A DNA stretch of 64,000 nucleotides from Heterotrichella gracilis. Taxonomy: Eukaryota; Sar; Xanthophyceae; Tribonematales; Xanthonemataceae. A model generated the notes under the pieces. The model was not told where the DNA came from, did not search any database, and saw only the letters and a list, made by a program, of their open reading frames with translations. The DNA is taken from assembly GCA_032358255.1 (NCBI GenBank), contig JAULBX010000559.1:95284-159283 (forward strand), given 5' to 3'. Of the stretch, positions 30,015-64,000 are shown piece by piece. Every line of letters begins with the position of its first letter. Within the stretch, counting starts at the first letter, position 1. A program made the position numbers and the translations under genes.

Positions 30015-33000
30015 TCACTCCCTCCCCGCAGGCACCAAAGTAAGGAACAGGCCAAAATGATCGCTTGGAAGCACAGGCAACACCACAGGCCCGTTCTTGT
30101 AGCTCTTGGTGTACGTTGCCCCCGGGATGGGCTCGGTCCCCACCATCTCAATATTCCCCAAGCGCCAGTCATGCAGGCGGTAGAACACCCTGTCCAACCT
30201 GTTCTGCAGCTTGTTGTATTTCCCCAGCATTGGGTTGCTCTTCCCATCGTAAGTCAAGCCAGGATCGGTGGGGCGCAGGTTGAGCCAGGCATCTCCCCTG
30301 CGTTACAAACAGACAAATGCATAAATACTCTTAAAATTATTACGCTCTGTAGCTTAAGCATGCGTGCGTTCTAGTAAAGAGACACTTGCAGCTTCACATC
30401 GAGCAGCCGCAAGAGCAATATCAAAAATATATACGCCATGCTGCACCTTGCAAGGCTTGCAATGCAGACGCAGCCAGTGCAAGCACGCACCATCTGTCGC
30501 CCAGTGGCGGCGCGCCATCCTGCGGGTTCCAGTTCATGTCACCAGCCCACAGCACGTTGCGCTCAAGGTAGGTGTCGAGCTTCTTGATTCCCTGCACAGG
30601 GTTTTGGGTTTCAAGTGTAGCACTGACACCTCAAGTACACGCGTTAGCAGAAAGCTCCTCTCAGTTTACTAAACAATCCAAAAAATTGGTCGCACAAAAA
30701 AATTTGTTCATGAATTACTGTTAAGTTCTTATATTTTCAAGAGGCAATGCAAACTCCTCCATCAAGCTACGCTCTGCATAATTTCTGCGGCGGAATACTG
30801 CTAGCGTGGCCCTGCCACAACATCCAAATGCAGTGCCAGATGCCCAACCGCAGCCACAGACCTACCATAGTGCACTGGGCAACCCTTTGCGCGCTCATCT
30901 TCTCTTCCTTAGTGAATCCCAGGGGGCTCTCCAGGTGCGATGTTGCCACCCGTATGGACACATTGCCAACTGTGGCGCTGATCATGAGGAGGCCCCGCCC
31001 TGCACCGCACAGGTAAGGAAACCCACTGTTTAGGGTTTAGGGTATAGGGTTACCATGAGGAGGCCCCGCCCTGCACCACATGGGCAAGACACCCACCGCT
31101 TATGTTTAGGGTATAGGGTTATCATGAGGAGGCCCCGCCCTGCGCCGCACAGGCAAACCACCCACCGTGACCAAAGAGGCCACCACATGCACGCGTGCGT
31201 GACCAGCTTGTCAGATACCCATGCCAACCATGCATCCTTGTTTGCTTTACACAGCAAGGCTTCAAATCCAGGCACCAGCAAATGCCCGATTGCATTTCAC
31301 ACTGGGTTTGCCTTGGCAACAAGAAATGGCCTGACAACGCGAATGCAATTGTTGTAACATAAACGAGAATGTGTTGTGCAGCACCCTATGGATGCTGTGG
31401 CTGTGCACAGACCTGCAGGTACAATGCAATCATGCACCCTCAGCAGTGGAAACTCACCCATTCTTGAATTTTGGAAGTCCAAATTCTCGGCTGACTGGGT
31501 GACCACCACTGCGTCCTTGCGGTGCAGGACCGTGGTGAAGTAGGGCTCTTTTGGTGGTGGCGTGGCCTTGTAGCGCCTCCACCAGGGGGCGAAGGACATC
31601 AAGTCGTAGATGTTTTCGGTCATCTCCTAGGGTCACAGCACGTGGGTGTTATAGAAAGCAGGGAAGGGACTGTCTGAGCTCCAAGCTTTGCGGCGCTACA
31701 TTTAGGCAGCAGCAGCAGCAGCAGCATTATCACCAGATTGAGCGTAGCCCAGCACCCTGCATGGGGCCTGTTCAGCCAGGGATGAGATGCCTAAAGGTCA
31801 AACGCTACATATGTATGCGCAGCCCTGTCCGCTAGGCTCGAGGCGCCTGCATGTACAATGTCCCAGCAGGGGTATTAATATATAAACCAGGAATTACATC
31901 CTGTATATATATTAACACCCCTGGTCCCAGCTATGCGCAATGCGCGTGCACTCAACATGGGTGAGCTCATTGGGGCCAGGGGTATACTAATATACTACCT
32001 CTTAGTATAGTGTTCTACCCCTGTTGGGCCCCATGGATAGTTGCTTGATTAGCGACTTTCCCGCCACGCTGGGCAGCGCTGCACCCTAGGGTGCAGCTGC
32101 ATGTGCTGCGTCTCTTGATGCTGCGGCTGGCATTGTGGCGAGGGTCCCTCGATCATGTGGGCAATCAAGTGACACGCCATGCTGGCATTGCGCCCCAGAA
32201 ATGCGCACCCTAAAACCCTAGACCCTAAAGCAGCGCCCCACCCATGCGCACCTGGAAGCAGATGAAGGTTGGGTAGCCCTTCTCCTCGATGATGCGGCCA
32301 ATGGCAGCTATGCGCTGCTCCAATGCAACCTGCTCATTGAACCTGCACCATTTCAACATTATGCGGTTGGTGTCATGGCAGCAAAAGGGCTTCGCCCTGA
32401 GGGACGGGGGTTCAGGTGACATTTGCTGAAGTGTACAATCGAGGTTCATTGGGCTCCTGACAACACTATGTCTAGCCTATGTCAGGCTCAGTTGATATGG
32501 CATCCAACGCAGCTGCTGAAGTGCTGACATGCGGCGTCAATGTCAGGCAATGAACGCCAGGACGCCGGAAGTCGCAACGACCTGCACTGGCTATGCCCAC
32601 ACCCCACACACGTCATCCAAACAAGAACGGTGCATGTGCAACTCACCAGACATTGTAGGTCAGCAGTGAGATGGGCGGAACCGACACCCGCTCCGCCTTG
32701 GGACCCCCGGCGCTTGAGGCCCCTGCGCATGGCTGTGTCGTGGGCTGCCTGCTTGCTGTTGATGCGCCTGGTTGTGCCTTGTGCTGGCCACCGGTTGAGG
32801 TGCCTGGCCCTGGTTGGGCCGAGGGTGGGGCTGGCAGCCGCTCAAGAGGCCTGCCAAGAGGAAAGCCACAGGCTGAGGTTGGCCGCAGTGTTTAACGGTA
32901 CCCTAAACCCTAGACCCTAGACCCTAAACCAAGACCTGGCAACGGGAAAGCCACAGGCTGAGGTATACCCCAGTGTTTCATATTCCAAGCATGTAGGCTG

Positions 33001-46317: not shown

Positions 46318-49300
46318 ATGCCCAACGCAGATCTGCCTATCTATGCGTACACCGACCAAATAGTGCAGGCAGTGAAAGGCAACCCGGTGACGGTCATCAT
46401 AGCCGAGACTGGCTCTGGCAAAACCACGCAAATACCGCAGGTATGCACTGCGCTCGACTGGAGCCCACTTGTATAACACACTATTTATCCAAAACTGAGG
46501 ATTGGTGCACTGTTTCAGCCATGTGCGCATGCGCAATTGCATTGTGCATGCTTGTCAAGGCATCCCGCCTGGAAACACGTGCTCATTGCCCACTGTGCTT
46601 CTGCATGACCACAGCAGCTGCCCTTAACAAGCTGACACACATATCTTGCTGCCTCAGATATTGCTGGAGGCTGGTGTGGCTGGCGATGGCGTCATCGGCA
46701 TCACACAGCCTCGCAGAGTGGTACGAACCCTGAAACCCTAGGCTTCAAACCCTGCTGCCAACTAAGCACACCGAGCTCATGTGAATGCATAGACCGGGCA
46801 GCACTGGTGCCGTGGCCATGGTACCTGGCACATGCTGAGCATGCTGTGATTTAGTCATCCAACTTGTGGGACGTGTGGATGCGTGTGGGACGTGTGGGAC
46901 GTGGGTGTGGATGCGGGAATGCAACAGGGTGCGCCTCAGACCAGGGCATAAACAGCAAAGTGGTGACCTTTGCATCTGCACAAGAAGTGAGACACCACAC
47001 CAACCTGGGCATCCGCTCACAAATGCGTGCGCGTGCCTGCAACGTCCGCCATCCTGCACGCCCCCAGAATCCGCATCCCCCTCACCACCAATGCACCTCT
47101 ACATTCTCGTGGCACCAGCATGCACTCCACATAGTTAGCGGTCATAAAGGGCACTGCAAGGGTTCAAGTGCTACTGTCTCAGTAGGGGCTTGGCGAGGGC
47201 TTGTGTGCTTCCTGCAGGCCGCGGTGATGGTATAAACCCTAAACACCCTGCACTCACCCTAAACCCTAATATGGATGGTGCAGCAAGGCATCCATGTGTT
47301 CCCCACAGGCCGCGGTGATGGTATAAACCTTAAACACCCTGGACTCACCCTAAACCCTAACATGGATGGCGCAGCAAGGCATCCATGTGTTCCCCACAGG
47401 CCGCGGTGATGGTGGCTCGGCGGGTGGCTGAGGAGCGAGACGCGGAGGTGGGAGGGGAGGTGGGCTATGCTGTGCGCTTTGAGGAGCGCACCTCACGCAA
47501 GACACGCATCAAGTACCTCACAGGTGGGTGCTTGCTGGTTGGGGCAATGCTGCAGCCTAGAACCCTGAACCCTAAAGGTCCCGCAGACGGCACCCTGCTT
47601 CTCAGGTCTGGATTAGGTGAACGGGTGCAGCACCAAAGTAGGCATACTCTAAAATTTCCATCTCCCTCACCCCTTTCCATTTAAACCCTAAACATCCTGG
47701 GTCCCACCACCCGCCTACAGACGGTACCCTGCTCCGGGAATGCCTGGACGACCCTCAGCTCACCCGCTACTCAGTCCTGGTCCTGGATGAGGCGCATGAG
47801 CGCAGCCTCAACACAGACATTCTCTTTGGGGTACTCAAGGGGCTGGTGGCCACAAGGACCTCCCCTCTGCGCCTGGTCATAACATCGGCCACCCTGGAGG
47901 GGGAGAAGTTTTCCGCCTATTTTCGGGACTGCCCTGTGCTGCATGTGCCTGGGAGGTGCTTCGAGGTGCAGGTCAGTGGTGACATCCCCCTTCATTTTCA
48001 GGCCCGGTATATAATTGTTGCAATGTCTGCTATGGGGCAGCTCTGCTTCAGCTTTGCATGGGGTAGTAGAGGTTCCTGTTAAATTGTAGGGGCTCCTGCT
48101 CATTCTTGGCGTACCAGGCACTCACGCGAAAGCATCTCGCCAGAAATCTTGGCTGATTTATATAGAACTGGCCAAGATGTGACCACTGGCGCAGGTGGTC
48201 AATGCGCTGGAGGACTGCTCCAAGGAGTTTGTGGCGGCTGCGGTGGACACCGCCATCGACATCCACTGCCATGAACCAGAAGGTGGGTGCAGAGGGGATT
48301 GGAGTGGAGTGGGATGTAATGGGCGCGGTGGGTGGTGGGGTGTTGGATGGGACTAGATTGTGGTAGGATGTCCGGGTGGATGAAGGGGGGCACTGGCATT
48401 GCCGGGTGAGTCTTGGTGTTCTAGGAGGCAGTGATCATTTTGTGTGGAGATGATGATCCACACATGTGCAGCATAACATGTGCTCGCATGAGGTCTTGTT
48501 CCCATAAAACTGTGACAAATTCACACTGAACGGCCCCATGACGCTGGGTTACATGCGCTCCAGCAGTACAACCACCTGAATGACGCCTGATGTACCTCAC
48601 ATGCAAATATGAGACGCACTGGCTCCTCCCCACCATGCCAACCCCCCTCCATCCTTGAATGCTTATATTTTTAATTGTTTTTTATCCCATTGAATTATAC
48701 TTAGATAAATAATATATGAGTGAATTGTAAAACAACTGCCCCCTCGCAGGCGACATCCTCATCTTCCTGACTGGCCAGGCCGAGATCGACAAGGCTGTGG
48801 CTCAGATCAACCAGGAGGTGCGGGGCCTGCCACCCGGCTCCTGTGGGGACCTCATGGTGCTTCCAATCTATGCGGCGCTGCCGCCGGAGCTGCAGGTGGG
48901 TTGGGCTGAGGGCTTAGGGTTCAGCGGTAGGCCAGGGGCGGGTGTGCATGCATTTGAGACATGGTGAGCTGGCATGGTGCGTAGCCTGCCTTGAGCGCTG
49001 CAGGTGGGGCTGTGGTTGCGGGGGCAGCAGTGTGGTTGCGGGGGCAGCAGTGTGGTTGCGGGGGCAGCAGGTGGGGCTGTGGTTGCGGGGCCAGCAGGTG
49101 GGGCTGTGGTTGCGGGGGCAGCAGGTGGGGCTGTGGTTGCGGGGGCAGCAGGCGGGGTTGTGGTTGCGGGGGCAGCAGGCGGGGTTGTGGTTGCGGGGGC
49201 AGCAGGCGGGGTTGTGGTTGCGGGGGCAGCAGTGTGTGCGCGGCCTCCTGGTGCTTCCAGTCTATGCGGCGCTGCCTCTGGAGCTGCAGGTGGGTTGGGT

Positions 49301-52300
49301 TGAGGGTGTAGGGGTAAGGTGCCGGCATGTGAGATCTCTATGTGCACGCTGCAATCGTAGGCAACGCTTCTGGATGTTGCGGATGTGGGATTGCATGCGA
49401 GGCTGTGCGCACACACATAGGTTAGCACGCCATGTAACTACCCATGTAGGTGCGCAGGCATGTAGACAGGCATGGCAGGTGGCGCTGCCGGCAGGCGGGA
49501 GCCGGGTGCATTCGGGGGTCTCATGGCATTGCCGGGTGTATGCCATGATGGGGGTGCGCACCTGCATGTTCTACACGTCTTCCAAATATTGGTGCCACAA
49601 GCAATTGATAAATCTCTAACACCCCATGCTCATGCCCCTGTCCCCTCTGCAGGCAAAAATACTCTCACTGTCTGTCTCGACCCATTCCTCCCCCATGCAC
49701 CCCCTTGCAGGCGCGTGTATTTGCCCCCTGCACCCCCGGGGTGCGCCGCTGCATCGTTGCCACCAACATAGCTGAGACCTCCATCACGGTGCCTGGGGTA
49801 GTGTACGTGATTGACCCTGGCCGGGTGAAGCAGAAGGACTACAACCCGCAGACAGGCATGGACAGCCTGGCGGTGGTGCCCATCTCAAGGTGGGTGCTGC
49901 TCACAGAATCAAATAATGTAAAACAAATAGGTTAATACTCTTTATCTGCATACTTCTTTTCTGTATTTCATAAATGATTGGTAATCTAACTGTTTGCTGC
50001 CTGTTTGTGCATACAGGCGCACCACATTGTGCATTAATTGAGGAAGAGCAACACTTCCAAAACCATTTCCAAACTCAATCCAAAAAACTGGCTTTCGCAG
50101 CTGCTTGTTTGGTGGTACCCTTGCCCCCACCCCCTCGAAATGCTCTTTGACCTACCCCCAATGATCCCCTTCCACAGGGTCCAAGCCACGCAGCGCACGG
50201 GGCGAGCAGGGCGCACCCGCCCTGGCAAGTGCTTCCGCCTGTACACCAAGAAATTCTTTGAGCGCGAGATGCCGAATGTGACCCCCCCCGAGATCCAGCG
50301 CACCTCCCTGCTGTCCGCAGTATTATACCTCAAAAGCCTGCCCCTGCAGATCGACGTGCTAGGGTTTGACTACCTGGATTCGCCCTCGGTGAGGACCCTA
50401 AACCCTAAGTCCTAAACAGGTTTGATTTCCTGGATTCGCCCTCAGGTAGAAATCCCCTGCATCTTATATCCCATGCATGCCACACGTGTTGCACGGAGGG
50501 AGGTTAGTGGTGGTCTTGAGGTGTTCATTCGGGCATGCGCTGCTGGTCAAATGACATGCAATCTCTTGCTTTGTCACACCAATGCCATGTCCAAGCAGGG
50601 CCGTCTCAACACATCGATGTGCCTCTACCTGGTGTGGTTGTAGGTCAATGTGGGTCGCGCAATTGCAGCCTGTCTGCCCCATGCTGTGTGGTACAACTCT
50701 GCAGGAATGTCCAGTTAGTGAGGCCATTGAACCCTGTGCGTTAATGAATTAGGTGCCCAATCACCGAACGTCTTGTTGCAAACCACCTTTCCAGGGCTCC
50801 CCGAATGCCCTCCCCACACACCCTTACCGCTGCCACCCCTCCCTCCCCACACACCCTAACCAGCGCACTCCCTCCCCTCCCTCCCCTTGACAGCCCGAGG
50901 CCCTCCAAGACGCGCTGCGCCAACTCTTTGTGCTGGACGCAATCGACATGGACGGCGCAATTACCCCCCTGGGCCACCAAATGGTAGCGCTCCCCCTGGA
51001 CCCCCCGCTGGCCAGGGCCCTAATTGCGGCCCGGGACCTGGGCTGCGTGCCCAACATGCTGACTGTGGCGGCCATGCTGTCGGCGGAGACCATCTTTTAT
51101 GGGAACAGGTGGGTGTGGATGGGGCTGCAAGAGCTTGTTTTTAAAGGTTTTAGAGGTTACTCTGAAGCCCGAACCATTGCAGCAAAAATTTGGCACGCGG
51201 GACTACGGGACTGCCCAGTGCGAAAAGGTAAAGGGGTTTTCTGTCCTTTGAGAATTACTTTTCCAATGTGCATCTGTCGGGGTTGAGAGGGCACCCATGT
51301 GTGGGACCACTGTGAGGTGTTTTCGCACAGTTATTGTGTGTGGGCGGCATGGGGCTGCCAACACTGGGCATGGAATGGAGGGGACTTGTCGTCACCCATA
51401 GCTGAACACAGTGTATGCATCACTAAACCACATGCATTGTCAGCCAGCCAGCCATGTGTTTTTGCTGCTGATCACCTTTGACATTAGCCAGTCCAGTTTT
51501 CAAGCAGCCTCGCACCAGTCTATAGGGGTTTGCGCCCAATTCCCCCATTTCCTTGCCCTCTTTTTGACGCACGTTCCTCGCTCGTCCTCCCAGGAGCCCT
51601 GAGCAGATTGCCAGCAACCGAGAGGACGCGCGCAAGCTGGGTGACCTAGTGACCAAGCAGGGCAGGGAAACCCTAAAAACCCTAATGTCTGAGGGCCTGG
51701 GCGACCACATCTTGTACCTGCGCCTGTACCAGGCCTGGCAACAAACCGAGTTTTCGCAGCCGTGGTGCAAATCCCTGGGAGTGGACGCCAGGGGGATGCG
51801 GTTTGCAAAAGAAGTGAGGAGGCAGCTGGTGGCCATCAGTCGGGAGGATGGGTCGGGCATTGCAGGTGGGTGGGGAAACCTGCGGGGAAGGGGGGTGCGC
51901 GGGTTACTGTGGGGTGCTGTGTGGGTGGATGGGTGGGTGGCGAGGGCAGTATAGTGATGGGTCATGGTGGAAATCGCTCATCATTTTGCTCCAAGGTTCT
52001 GGGAGTTGACCCCAGGGGGATGCAAATTGCGAAAGAAGTGAGGAGGTAGCTGGTGGCGGTATCCACTAGTAGGGAGGATGGGTCGGGCATTGCAGGTGGG
52101 CGGGGGTGGGCAAAGGGTGGTGTGTGAGTTGTGCGGGCAACAAAATGCACCACTGTGGTCCACTGCCCCATTGGGGCCGCTGGGAAGGATCAAGCATGAA
52201 ACCACCTGCTAAATTCACAACTTGCCCCATTGAACCATAGCACCCTGCCCTACCACGGTGTAGCCCAGCGCGCACACTCCCTGCTCCACCACCGCAGGCG

Positions 52301-53575
52301 CTGCGCGACGGCAAGGGGGAAACACATCAACCAGTGGAAAAGGGGAGGACGGCGAGCCTGCCTCCAAGCGCAGCAAGGTGACGACAGACGAGGTGCTGTC
52401 ACGGGGAGGAAGCCTGGACTTGTTGCGCCAGGCGCTGACTGTGGGGTTTGCCACCCGCATCGGCCGCCGCATGACCATGCACAATGGCTACCGGACGCTG
52501 AATGAGGCGGGCACGCTGGCGCAGCTGCACCCGTCAACGGCGTAGTAAGTGGAAGCCTTTCTTGTTGCTTGTATGGGTGGGTAGGGCAAGGCTATTAGCA
52601 ACAGCATGGACCCTACACCCTGGATCCACGGGTATACTAAACTATATTAACGCTAGTATATTTAATACACCCCTGATGGACCTTATCCATTACGCATCCA
52701 CACATGGGTTCAGGGTTAGTTGTAGGGTTTAGGGTGCTTCTGACACTCTCGTCTCCTGCAGCATCGCCACTGATGACGATCGGCTGCTGCCAGAGTGGGT
52801 CATCTACCACGAGCTCATGGCCACAGGCAAGGTGTTCCTGGCCAAGGTGTGCCCCATCGAGGGGCGGTGGGTGGACCCGCTCCTGCCCAAGCTGCGCGGG
52901 GTGGATGTGCAGCGGCTCAGCGGCGGGAGAACCACTGAGAAGGCCATTGCCACGGCGGAGGCGGCTGCCAATAAAGGCAGGTGGCTCAATGTCCTCGTCA
53001 GTGTAATTCATGCATGGCATGGTTCAGAAGGTTGTCGTGCGTCACACAAAATGTTGGTTGGAAGCATTGCTGGCCATACATATTTGTGCGGCGTTGCTGC
53101 ACTGTGTTAGGCTGATCTGCGCATCCATGTAATGCGCAGCAATACGGCACGCACCCTGCCCTATCTGTTTCTGTTCCAGATGGGTTCAATTAGGCCTTGC
53201 ATGTTGAAAGTACCCACATGCACTTACAAACACAGCCAGTGCAGGGTCCAGCCATGCAGCATCAAACATTTCCGCCATTTTCAATACCATATGTTCATCT
53301 TGCATGAACAATGTCCTGCTGGGCCGCATCCCGCTGTGGGCCTTGCCTAGTAGCACACCTTTCCCCCTTTCTACCACGGCACCACCATGGTCCATGCATG
53401 AAGCCTGGTTGGTAAGGTCACTGAACCCATCCTCAATTGATTGCATCCTGTTGTAGACCAGCATGAGGCGGAGCGCAAGGCGGCGGCAGCGGCTGCACTG
53501 GTGCGGCGCAACGACAACGTGGCGGTGGATGCAGCGCGCGCACGCTACCTGGCCCGCAAGGCAGCCAAGAAGTGA
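46318..53575 (+). CDS. DEAH4: DEAH-box RNA helicase, DEAH4 type, about 750 aa
   Basis: Thirteen exons in phase: 46318-46440, 46658-46720, 47400-47523, 47721-47971, 48195-48282, 48750-48895, 49711-49889, 50178-50388, 50894-51108, 51594-51865, 52298-52544, 52762-52976 and 53457-53575. Motifs: Walker [14 protein letters not shown] (29-41), ITQPRRV (Ia), DEAH (126-129), [10 protein letters not shown] (III), [13 protein letters not shown] (IV), [10 protein letters not shown] (V) and [12 protein letters not shown] (VI). Winged-helix, ratchet and OB-fold blocks follow ([45 protein letters not shown]), then an end [11 protein letters not shown]. Short N-terminus and end match Arabidopsis At1g27900. 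It would remodel RNA or RNP with ATP, probably in splicing. The exon 12 donor is ambiguous: GC (AAAG|GCAGGT) keeps phase best. Five of its splice junctions are duplicated in introns. Confidence 0.93.
47218..47399. repeat. two 91-nt tandem copies of the DEAH4 exon 3 start
   Basis: GCCGCGGTGATGGT, the first codons of exon 3 with the preceding acceptor, occurs at 47218, 47309 and at the real exon 47400, exactly 91 nt apart. Each upstream copy is followed by CCCTAAACACCCTG(C/G)ACTC plus ACCCTAAACCCTAA. Confidence 0.92.
47560..47602. repeat. intronic copy of the DEAH4 exon 4 acceptor and start
   Basis: AACCCTGAACCCTAAAGGTC followed by CCGCAGACGGCACCCTGCTT mirrors the real junction (ACAGACGGTACCCTGCTC at 47717-47734) and its upstream AAACCCTAAACATCCTGGGT. 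Confidence 0.8.
49005..49249. repeat. G-rich minisatellite in DEAH4 intron 6
   Basis: About nine copies of GTGGTTGCGGGGGCAGCAG, with or without a GTGGGGCT spacer, giving mixed periods near 18 and 27 nt. One strand is strongly G-rich with G-tracts of five. Confidence 0.92.
49250..49308 (+). repeat. intronic copy of the DEAH4 exon 6 end and donor
   Basis: GGTGCTTCCAGTCTATGCGG through GAGCTGCAGGTGGGTTGGG repeats the real exon end and donor at 48857-48905 with few changes. It lies just after the minisatellite. Confidence 0.9.
50418..50446 (+). repeat. intronic copy of the DEAH4 exon 8 end and donor
   Basis: AGGTTTGATTTCCTGGATTC plus GCCCTCAGGTAG copies AGGGTTTGACTACCTGGATT plus CGCCCTCGGTGAG at 50361-50392. 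CCCTAAACCCTAAGTCCTAA lies between the two. Confidence 0.88.
51998..52100 (+). repeat. decayed copy of the DEAH4 exon 10 end and donor
   Basis: About 100 nt matching 51774-51874 with scattered changes. It reads [17 protein letters not shown] and then a TAG stop where exon 10 has Gln (CAG), followed by REDGSGIAG and the same GTGGG donor. If spliced in, it would truncate the protein. Confidence 0.9.
52619..52679. repeat. AT-rich foldback, probably related to those at 31867 and 31972
   Basis: GGATCCACGGGTATACTAAA pairs imperfectly with ...ATTTAATACACCCCTGATGG. It shares the GGGTATACTAA arm with the TDP2 intron elements. Located in DEAH4 intron 11. Confidence 0.6.
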
Positions 53576-54539
53576 CGCACCCTGTGGTGTGGTGCTCGTG
53601 CGGATGGCCATGCAACATTTGGTGAATGTGCTGGTGCCTTCTGCCAGAGGCACATGGCTGCGCTCACTCATGGGTGGATAGGGCGCAGGGTTTAGGGTCT
53701 TCTTAAACCCTAGGCAACTGCTGGAGCTATTGGGCACTGTGACTGCGTGCAAAGCACTGGAGCGAGCGGTGTATAGTATGTGTGCCACTTGTGGTACTTG
53801 TCCTCAGATTGCCTTTACTCCACCCAAGGGTTGGACTGGCAGCCAGTGCCGCACCTACTGTAGTGTAAGAGCTAAGTGAAAGAGCTTTCTTTGGACGAAT
53901 TTGCACTTTGCTGCTGTAGGATTGGGGCAAGTCTCAAGGTTGCTGTGGGTAATCTGAAACCCTAACGTGGTGGGCGACGAGGGTTTGTGATTGTTGGGGA
54001 TCTGCCGTGTCGTCGCCCAAAAGCATTTGATCGTGTGGGCTGGTGTGTCACCGCTCGGCTTCCTCCGCCAGCTACACGTGCAGGGCATGGAGCGCGTATC
54101 TTCCGGGTGTGATCCCCTTCTATCTGGGGTGCAGCTGCCGACCTGGGTTTGGATTTACAAAGTGCGTTACGTGCAAGGGCATGACAGCTGCATCCACCGC
54201 TGACGCAGCAGGGGAAAGAGAGCAATCGGCTTTCCGACATGGATCCTTGCATCCCGACACCAGGGGTCGTGTTGCGATTCTATTTAACCGAAGCAGCTGA
54301 GCAGCTCTGTCCATTCTGTCGAGCTTCTGCTGCGTTCAAGTTGTTAGCTGAACACCGTTCTGAGCTGTTCCTAGCTTTGCATACCCACTGTTGCCGACTT
54401 TGTCACAGCCATCACCGTTTACCGACTTTCAGGTTGCAAACCCAGGAAAAGTTCCGAGCCGTCAAGGTCTCTCCCTGTGTCATATAAAGCCTGGTGCTTT
54501 CCCCACGTAGCAGCGCAGCGCCGCCCCGTTTTGACCACC
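53576..54539. other. intergenic region
   Basis: Downstream of DEAH4 and upstream of the four-pass membrane protein. A weak TTTAGGG-like run occurs at 53688-53712 on both sides of a short spacer. No exon supported. Confidence 0.4.
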
Positions 54540-63943: not shown

Positions 63944-64000
63944 GTGGGGTGGGGGGGGGGGGGGGGGGGCGGGGGGGGGGGGGCGGGGGCACCCGCCGGG
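63944..64000. repeat. poly-G tract at the window edge
   Basis: Nearly unbroken G for about 40 nt with single C interruptions, ending GGGCACCCGCCGGG. Either a real G-run after the Pumilio stop or an assembly-end artefact. Confidence 0.7.

What the first reader, a model, noticed from the sequence alone, without database searches (positions are those of the whole stretch)
46318..53575. Splice junctions of one gene repeatedly copied into its own introns
Five junctions of the DEAH4 helicase (starts of exons 3 and 4; ends of exons 6, 8 and 10) have one or more extra copies in the adjacent intron, each spanning the exon edge plus the splice signal. Other genes in the window (TDP2 exons 3 and 6, the 15.9-kb membrane protein, Pumilio exon 8) show the same. 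In several cases the copies are separated by CCCTAAA-like units. Random tandem duplication would not be expected to pick out exon edges so often. This could be a footprint of a break-and-repair process biased to splice sites, or of intron growth or sliding by tandem duplication of AGGT-containing segments, a proposed route of intron gain. This is the best candidate here for something undescribed.
Basis: partly seen in the sequence, partly recalled or inferred. Interest (0 to 1): 0.8.

Follow-up and report, generated by a model that had tools for sequence, protein, structure and literature searches.

The report
Telomere insertions that duplicate exon edges
In this green-alga-like genome, pieces of DNA, often chromosome-end (telomere) repeats, appear to have been inserted at the borders between exons and introns, duplicating the border itself, so that introns grow while the protein stays intact.

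Summary
In detail: all five DEAH-helicase junctions carry the copies described. In a 264-kb sample about 11% of predicted junctions have such a copy (34/297 donors, 31/297 acceptors; 1% null). Perfect telomere runs of at least 11 nt: 49 intron, 3 intergenic, 0 exon; 34 of 49 lie within 60 nt of an exon edge, where 30% of intron bases lie. Of near-edge runs, 32/64 are flanked by direct repeats (1% null), and 28 of these 32 reach the exon edge. Best explanation: repair of staggered breaks with telomere or other filler; exon hits are purged, hits across a splice site survive because the copy beside the exon is still used. Purging does not explain why telomere runs are near background between genes and sparse inside introns, so insertions seem concentrated at exons or their edges. 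For duplications as such the edge excess is modest. AGGT intron gain is little supported. A new variant of known repair footprints.

The parts
46318..53575 (+). DEAH-box helicase gene, 13 exons: 46318-46440, 46658-46720, 47400-47523, 47721-47971, 48195-48282, 48750-48895, 49711-49889, 50178-50388, 50894-51108, 51594-51865, 52298-52544, 52762-52976 (GC-AG donor), 53457-53575
   Evidence: continuous translation; phmmer to DHX8/PRP22, E about 1e-162; Pfam DEAD, Helicase_C, HA2
47204..47413 (+). Exon 3 acceptor edge in three copies (91-bp unit: exon start GCCGCGGTGATGGT + degenerate telomere repeats + acceptor); the last one leads into the exon
47584..47599 (+). Decayed copy of exon 4 acceptor edge (CAGACGGCACCCTGCT), working copy at 47718-47733; telomere-like runs at 47561-47577 and 47681-47694 (places worked out)
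   Evidence: 15 of 16 identical, 0 of 2000 shuffles; runs
48850..48919 (+). Exon 6 donor edge, working copy (exon end at 48895)
   Evidence: 90% to 49244-49313
49244..49313 (+). Copy of exon 6 donor edge inside intron 6
49011..49232 (+). 20/27-bp G-rich tandem array between the two exon 6 edge copies
   Evidence: Tandem Repeats Finder
50363..50390 (+). Exon 8 donor edge, working copy (X1)
50391..50418 (+). Filler with telomere repeats (gaggaccctaaaccctaagtcctaaaca)
50419..50447 (+). Copy of exon 8 donor edge in intron 8 (X2)
51775..51875 (+). Exon 10 donor edge, working copy
   Evidence: 84% to 51999-52105
51999..52105 (+). Copy of exon 10 donor edge in intron 10; filler without a telomere run
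   Evidence: filler letters
52706..52736 (+). Telomere-like run 25 nt upstream of the exon 12 acceptor (place worked out)
30981..31167 (-). Acceptor edge of a minus-strand gene in three copies separated by telomere repeats
32843..32978 (-). Acceptor edge duplicated around a telomere run (32899-32931)
32190..32252 (-). Donor-edge X of 20 bp on both sides of a telomere run at 32207-32231

Best explanation
The exon-edge copies are mostly target-site duplications left by insertions at or across an exon-intron border. Two staggered cuts some 15-100 bp apart are filled in, which duplicates the segment X between them, and extra DNA is joined in the middle: often the cell's own telomere repeat (added by telomerase or captured), otherwise other filler. 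If X contains a splice site, the copy next to the exon (first donor, last acceptor) keeps working, so the protein is unchanged and the intron gains X plus filler. The same insertion inside an exon destroys the gene, since a telomere run of 21 nt or more has a stop codon in every frame of either strand. Shown: X-filler-X architecture, telomere filler, position at exon edges, depletion in exons and between genes. Inferred: staggered breaks, telomerase, use of the exon-proximal copy, and a preference for exons or their edges.
For: Copies of exon edges in own introns: exon last/first 40 nt 19/331 and 12/334 (score 34 or more), exon nt 41-80 4/276 and 5/284, exon nt 81-120 0/220 and 0/220; introns of other genes 0.0%. 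Telomere-like bases 20.1/kb in introns, 3.0 intergenic, 2.8 exon; 19 permuted units 2.7-7.2/kb in introns; peak 6-60 nt from edges. Perfect runs of 11 nt or more: 49 intron, 3 intergenic (p = 1.5e-5), 0 exon; 34/49 within 60 nt (p = 1.5e-8). A telomere run near a donor goes with an exon-edge copy beyond it: 15/44 versus 21/257 (p = 2e-5); acceptors 8/33 versus 18/268 (p = 0.003). Flanking direct repeats at a 1% null: 32/64 near-edge runs (29 of 58 introns when counted once per intron); X reaches a predicted exon edge in 28 of these 32, and in 33 of all 49 flanked runs. Clean cases: C2 155327-155346, X = GCCATTGG|GTACGTG around aaccctaaaccctaaaca; L044, X of 25 bp across a donor, abutting a 34-bp array on both sides. 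Both repeat orientations are common on the donor side. Telomerase domain present; CCCTAAA arrays begin within 7 bases of the start of contigs C70, C140, C526, C609. A second, homology-supported gene, diaminopimelate decarboxylase, has exon-edge copies at two junctions, one with telomere filler. Seven of 16 loci taken for perfect arrays pass the same flank score.
Against: No empty allele or sister genome was available, so insertion is read from architecture only. For duplications in general the edge excess over the purge-and-decay simulation is about two-fold, p = 0.02-0.13. Pairs and runs are clustered, so p-values are optimistic. Most gaps between copies hold no telomere-like sequence: 26 of 93 do, 12 of 37 for pairs of 85% identity or more. 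Telomere runs are not confined to the edge: 50 of 114 intron runs lie more than 60 nt away, 15 of those 50 flanked by repeats, and far intron still exceeds intergenic (p = 0.045). Telomerase polarity is weak: the repeat abuts X within 3 nt on the priming side in 20/50 flanked cores, on the other side in 14/50. Run purity does not fall with distance from the edge (rho -0.10, p = 0.17). Introns of 60-100 nt have a run in 0.06 of cases and 13.5 bases/kb, about half the value of longer introns up to 600 nt. Gene models are my own ab initio predictions, seeded with the DEAH exons; some duplicated edges are mispredicted as exons. 9 of 16 perfect-array loci show no flanking repeat, and some lie away from predicted exons.
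Confidence: 0.57

Rival explanations
1. Survivorship only: X-filler-X insertions fall uniformly over the genome; exon hits are purged, and edge copies stand out because the exonic copy is conserved and stays recognisable longer.
For: Random local shifts already put 28.7 of 120 pairs at an edge. In simulation the edge/intron ratio is 0.98-1.17, and at the loosest threshold the observed ratio is 1.19. Intron-intron pairs are common (26 of 120).
Against: Telomere-like sequence is at background between genes and falls to 7-10 bases/kb more than 200 nt inside introns (permuted units 2.7-7.2), both neutral ground. Observed edge/intron ratio is 2.30 and 2.06 at scores 34 and 40.
Confidence: 0.2
2. 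Exon-directed breaks: the process hits coding exons anywhere (for example because of chromatin or transcription) and only hits reaching an edge survive.
For: Explains the thin cover between genes and in intron interiors and the edge peak without a splice-site-specific agent; in the listings X often reaches further into the exon than into the intron (by eye).
Against: Stop and start codons, where a duplicated edge might also be tolerated, show no clear excess: 7.2 and 4.8 bases/kb in 100-nt windows against 44.1 in 60-nt windows at donors, but 3 of 50 sites versus 12.5% is not significant (p = 0.11). New introns expected from exon hits at AGGT are few at most.
Confidence: 0.35
3. Telomere repeats came first by other means and, being fragile, later triggered local duplications around themselves.
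For: Multi-copy units that include the telomere part (91-bp exon 3 unit, 101-bp unit at C2 135568) look like secondary expansion. A 2024 paper reports that interstitial telomeric sequences promote rearrangement (PMC11626172, title and start of abstract in the listing).
Against: In the cleanest cases the run abuts both copies of X (C2 155327; L038, L041, L044), as expected of one insertion. It does not explain why the runs are at exon edges.
Confidence: 0.15
4. A transposable element of the introner type inserts at splice sites.
For: Direct repeats and gene bias resemble introner families described in PMC9860276 (passages).
Against: Two long non-telomeric fillers matched only themselves in the genome (that search skips common words, and only two were tried). 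X of 15-90 bp is far longer than the 3-9 bp duplications cited there. Little sign of new introns. Dispersed repeats shared between introns do exist, and I did not test systematically whether fillers match them.
Confidence: 0.05
5. Telomere motifs are kept near edges by selection as splicing elements.
For: Only the C-rich orientation is common at 20-30 nt from acceptors (39.4 versus 3.1 per kb).
Against: Near donors both orientations are similarly dense (34.8 and 41.8 per kb at 12-20 nt). Selection alone would not write perfect 21-31-bp arrays.
Confidence: 0.06

Closest known systems
Interstitial telomeric sequences inserted during double-strand break repair in mammals (PMC2246262, PMC7215372; passages)
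   Same: Short own-telomere arrays inserted at internal sites; some with direct duplication of the target, ascribed to staggered breaks; none in human exons.
   Different: There duplication marks 4.6% (rodent) to 16% (primate) of events and deletion dominates, and the intron share of human arrays fits random placement. Here half of near-edge runs are flanked by repeats of up to about 90 bp, and runs are concentrated in introns near exon edges.
Daphnia new introns with internal direct repeats from repeated staggered breaks (PMC4202315; passages)
   Same: Direct repeats inside introns read as repair of staggered breaks and as passive intron growth.
   Different: There the introns are new, repeats of the exon end are 4-12 bp, and the string 'telomer' does not occur in the text. 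Here existing junctions are duplicated, often with telomere filler.
Repair-mediated duplications in vertebrates (PMC2671141; abstract and passages)
   Same: Close local duplications with filler, including some splice sites.
   Different: Only 4 partial exon/intron donors among 824 there; no telomere filler class in the passages seen.
Intron gain by tandem genomic duplication of AGGT (PMC3443670; passages)
   Same: Duplication containing splice-site sequence.
   Different: In-register signature of gained introns is near chance here.
Telo boxes of Arabidopsis and rice (PMC3022908; passages)
   Same: Short telomere motifs in genes; telomerase at transcription-linked breaks proposed as origin.
   Different: There they concentrate in 5' UTRs and first introns; overall intron density (150.7 per Mb) is not above the Arabidopsis genome (155.2).
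Direct repeats near intron borders in 213 introns of all classes (PMC11782384; abstract and passages)
   Same: Direct repeats at splice borders ascribed to break repair.
   Different: There the two repeats sit at the opposite ends of one intron (4-30 bp) and mark intron insertion; here both copies lie on the same side, one inside an existing intron.

Membership tests
Telomeric repeat insertion at double-strand breaks (short ITS) | Array of the genome's own telomere unit | tested here: met
   CCCTAAA arrays begin within 7 bases of the start of four contigs; telomerase RNA-binding domain found
Telomeric repeat insertion at double-strand breaks (short ITS) | Insertion into a formerly empty site | not testable with these tools
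   no relatives held (note); no second haplotype of the gene found
Telomeric repeat insertion at double-strand breaks (short ITS) | Break-site modification (deletion, addition or duplication) | tested here: met
   flanking direct repeats at 49 of 124 runs; deletions and additions cannot be seen without empty sites
Telomeric repeat insertion at double-strand breaks (short ITS) | Telomerase priming side abuts target, in register | tested here: inconclusive
   20/50 versus 14/50 within 3 nt; register not scored
Telomeric repeat insertion at double-strand breaks (short ITS) | Random distribution outside exons (as in human) | tested here: not met
   49 intron versus 3 intergenic, 34/49 near edges
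Introner | Many similar copies across genes | tested here: inconclusive
   two fillers tried, both matched only themselves; no systematic search
Introner | Creates a new intron in an exon | tested here: not met
   in-register test near chance
Tandem genomic duplication intron gain (AGGT) | Exon end repeated at intron end in register | tested here: not met
   0 to 4 of 311-349 introns against 0.3-1.5 expected; a few single cases not excluded
Repair-mediated (patch) duplication | Local duplication with filler between copies | tested here: met
   listings; most pairs have gaps of tens to hundreds of bp, some are pure tandem

The most novel reading that the evidence does not exclude
A splice-junction-directed insertion process: co-transcriptional breaks at exon-intron borders are healed with telomere repeats and long target duplications, and this is a main engine of intron growth in this lineage, adding intron sequence from the exon edge inwards.
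Probability: 0.27. Interest if true: 0.85.

Novelty: new variant of a known kind. Interest (0 to 1): 0.6.

Why it matters
How introns lengthen is mostly inferred from old sequence. Here the source (telomere repeat), the target (splice junction) and the duplicated segment can often be recognised in the same event, and about one predicted junction in ten carries a copy. That makes break position and repair pathway testable event by event. It would also link telomere maintenance to intron growth, and it gives a simple rule for why such insertions survive where splicing can discard them.

Tried and rejected
Tandem-duplication intron gain (in-register test): 0 to 4 introns per setting against 0.3 to 1.5 expected, so at most a few. 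Introner or other element family: two fillers matched only themselves; cross-gene intron repeats exist, a dispersed family and two neighbouring related genes, and by eye the array of L001 lies in a copy of that dispersed family. Second haplotype with empty sites: the gene's DNA matches itself at full identity and seven other places at 69-85%, which I take for paralogous exons. Selection against decoy splice sites in the copies: positions +1/+2 and -2/-1 are about as well kept as neighbours (26 donor, 16 acceptor copies), none seen. Age gradient away from the edge: none (that script stopped with an error after this result and its last part was redone). Newborn introns made of telomere repeat: introns of 60-100 nt are poor in runs. 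Stop and start codons as a test of exon targeting: too few sites. I saw no paper on telomere insertions at exon edges among the rows listed, which are only the top rows of each search, for five phrases on telomere repeats in introns, returned 0 papers. The library holds only open-licence PMC papers. Patch-mediated repair in rice and paired-nick duplications in Arabidopsis are recalled, not read.
Full report
What was checked. The window is C8:95284-159283 of a 68.5-Mb genome in 903 contigs. The genome has 43 matches to the light-harvesting family PF00504 and a telomerase domain; with the gene content this points to a green alga, which is inference. I rebuilt the DEAH gene (13 exons, continuous translation; homologous to DHX8/PRP22) and confirmed all five junction copies at the given places. 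Of the other window genes named, three junctions of a minus-strand gene near 31-33 kb are confirmed, the 15.9-kb case is an exon piece about 19-43 nt from the edge, and Pumilio is not confirmed as an edge case.

Sample and gene models. To judge rates I used the window plus C2:1-200000, 264 kb in all, 0.4% of the genome and two contigs, not drawn at random. I wrote a self-trained splice/coding HMM giving 34 predicted genes. It was seeded with the DEAH exons, so its fit to that gene is no independent test, and even there it adds false exons (for example 49004-49250). Exons under 20 nt were ignored from then on (under 15 nt). Independent checks: three predicted C2 proteins gave Pfam matches, one of them joining two families and so probably two genes; a predicted diaminopimelate decarboxylase aligns with the plant enzyme over query residues 44-469. 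That model has one 14-residue insert, probably because it kept both copies of a duplicated acceptor edge (pair 188741/188929).

Duplications. BLAST of the sequence against itself found 120 local pairs of 30 bits or more (20 window, 100 C2) against 0 in one Markov-shuffled window. Fifty of 120 have a copy covering a predicted junction; random local shifts give 28.7, sd 4.0. Junction+intron pairs: 35 versus 15.8 expected. Intron-intron and intergenic pairs are fewer than expected (26 versus 37.2; 9 versus 18.9). A direct test asked whether the exon end or start is found again in its own intron: 19/331 and 12/334 at score 34, falling to 4/276 and 5/284 for exon nt 41-80 and 0/220, 0/220 for 81-120; three intron windows together 15/807; introns of other genes 0.0-0.1%. 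At a 1% null, 34/297 donors and 31/297 acceptors of introns of 130 nt or more have a copy. Pairs with telomere-like sequence in the unit are more often at an edge (25/35) than the rest (39/77; p = 0.03).

How much is survivorship. I simulated uniform X-filler-X insertions, removal of exon-only hits, and neutral decay with constrained exons. The edge-to-intron ratio of detections was 0.98-1.17 over 12 combinations of settings and thresholds; observed 1.19, 1.55, 2.30 and 2.06 at scores 24, 28, 34 and 40. Against a null ratio of 1.15, p = 0.13, 0.02 and 0.08 for 28, 34 and 40. So for duplications alone the edge preference is modest.

Telomere filler. CCCTAAA is the telomere unit here (contig starts). 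The perfect 21-mer matches 834 times in the genome, overlaps counted, the reversed control 0. Telomere-like 10-mers (one mismatch allowed) cover 20.1 bases/kb of 364 predicted introns, 3.0/kb of intergenic DNA and 2.8/kb of exons; the 19 permuted units give 2.7-7.2/kb in introns. They peak 6-60 nt from exon edges and fall to 7-10/kb beyond 200 nt. On the donor side both orientations are similarly common (34.8 C-rich and 41.8 G-rich per kb at 12-20 nt); at acceptors the C-rich one dominates (39.4 versus 3.1 per kb at 20-30 nt), which I read as purging of G-rich runs where a pyrimidine tract is needed. Perfect runs of at least 11 nt: 49 intron, 3 intergenic, 0 exon; 34/49 within 60 nt of an edge, which holds 30% of intron bases; the 19 permuted units together give 14 intron, 5 intergenic, 1 exon. 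At 14 nt or more: 25 intron, 2 intergenic, 0 exon, 15/25 within 60 nt; the permuted units together 0. Gaps between intronic copies contain telomere-like sequence in 21/68, 6.9 expected for random intron intervals.

The two belong together. A donor with a telomere run within 60 nt has an exon-edge copy beyond the run in 15/44 cases, others 21/257; acceptors 8/33 versus 18/268. Without reference to exons, 32 of 64 near-edge runs, 15 of 50 other intron runs, 2 of 5 exon or overlapping runs and 0 of 5 intergenic runs are flanked by direct repeats at a 1% null. Counted once per intron, 29 of 58 introns with near-edge runs and 12 of 43 with far runs have flanked ones; X reaches a predicted exon edge in 28 of the 32 near-edge and 33 of all 49 flanked runs. 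Of 106 perfect cores in the sample and array loci, 50 are flanked; X is 15-87 bp, median 38, and total filler 15-166 bp, median 54. Of 16 loci taken only because they hold perfect arrays (one lies in the C2 sample, two overlap), 7 pass the same score; X clearly includes a predicted splice junction in three (L002, L003, L044) and comes from an exon end in a fourth (L037); 9 do not pass.

Mechanism. The simplest reading is insertion with target-site duplication: staggered cuts, fill-in, and telomere or other DNA joined between. Both orientations at donors fit a DNA-level event. Long telomere runs have stop codons in all frames of both strands (PMC7215372 makes the same point; passage), so exon hits should be lethal unless spliced out. 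Across a splice site the exon-proximal copy can remain in use and the intron grows. The three copies at DEAH exon 3 imply more than one round. Telomerase itself is not proven: the priming-side bias is 20/50 versus 14/50, and most gaps hold no telomere-like sequence (67 of 93).

What remains odd. Purging explains absence from exons, not the near-background level between genes (3 perfect runs in 58.7 kb) and the thinner cover more than 60 nt inside introns (15 in about 95 kb, against 34 in about 40 kb near edges). Either breaks are concentrated at exons and only edge hits survive, or the junction itself is the target. Stop and start codons show no clear excess (3 of 50 sites versus 12.5%, p = 0.11), too few to decide.

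Against known kinds. Mammalian telomeric insertions, Daphnia intron repeats and vertebrate repair-mediated duplications are the same kind of footprint. What differs here is the concentration at exon-intron borders, the long X and the frequency. Within the searches made (listed under Tried and rejected) I found no report of this.

Noticed in passing
window 51660-51695 (DEAH exon 10): AAACCCTAAAAACCCTAATG is read in frame inside an exon and falls within or beside an extra stretch of about 18 residues relative to DHX8: possibly a telomere-like insertion that survived in coding sequence.
   Followed up: partly
window 52976/52977: The intron after DEAH exon 12 appears to start with GC (AAAG|GCAGGT), a GC-AG intron needed to keep the frame.
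   Followed up: partly
window 53689-53715: Head-to-head telomere repeats (GGGTTTAGGGTCTTCTTAAACCCTAGG) about 115 nt after the DEAH stop codon.
   Followed up: no
L003 about 1430-1640: A 30-nt predicted mini-exon with both its splice sites is duplicated on the two sides of a telomere array.
   Followed up: partly
introns of predicted C2 genes at 71.5-74.4, 83.9-89.8, 91.0-93.9 and 187.8-196.3 kb, and others: A dispersed repeat (TAGTTAGTTACATGCATTCCAGCAATACAGCCAGATTAGCAG...) is shared by introns of several different genes.
   Followed up: no
C2 121116-121609 (adenylate-kinase-like gene): A coding block is duplicated with intron sequence, so the predicted protein contains the segment twice.
   Followed up: no
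window 63946-63990: G-rich homopolymer-like tract near the window end.
   Followed up: no
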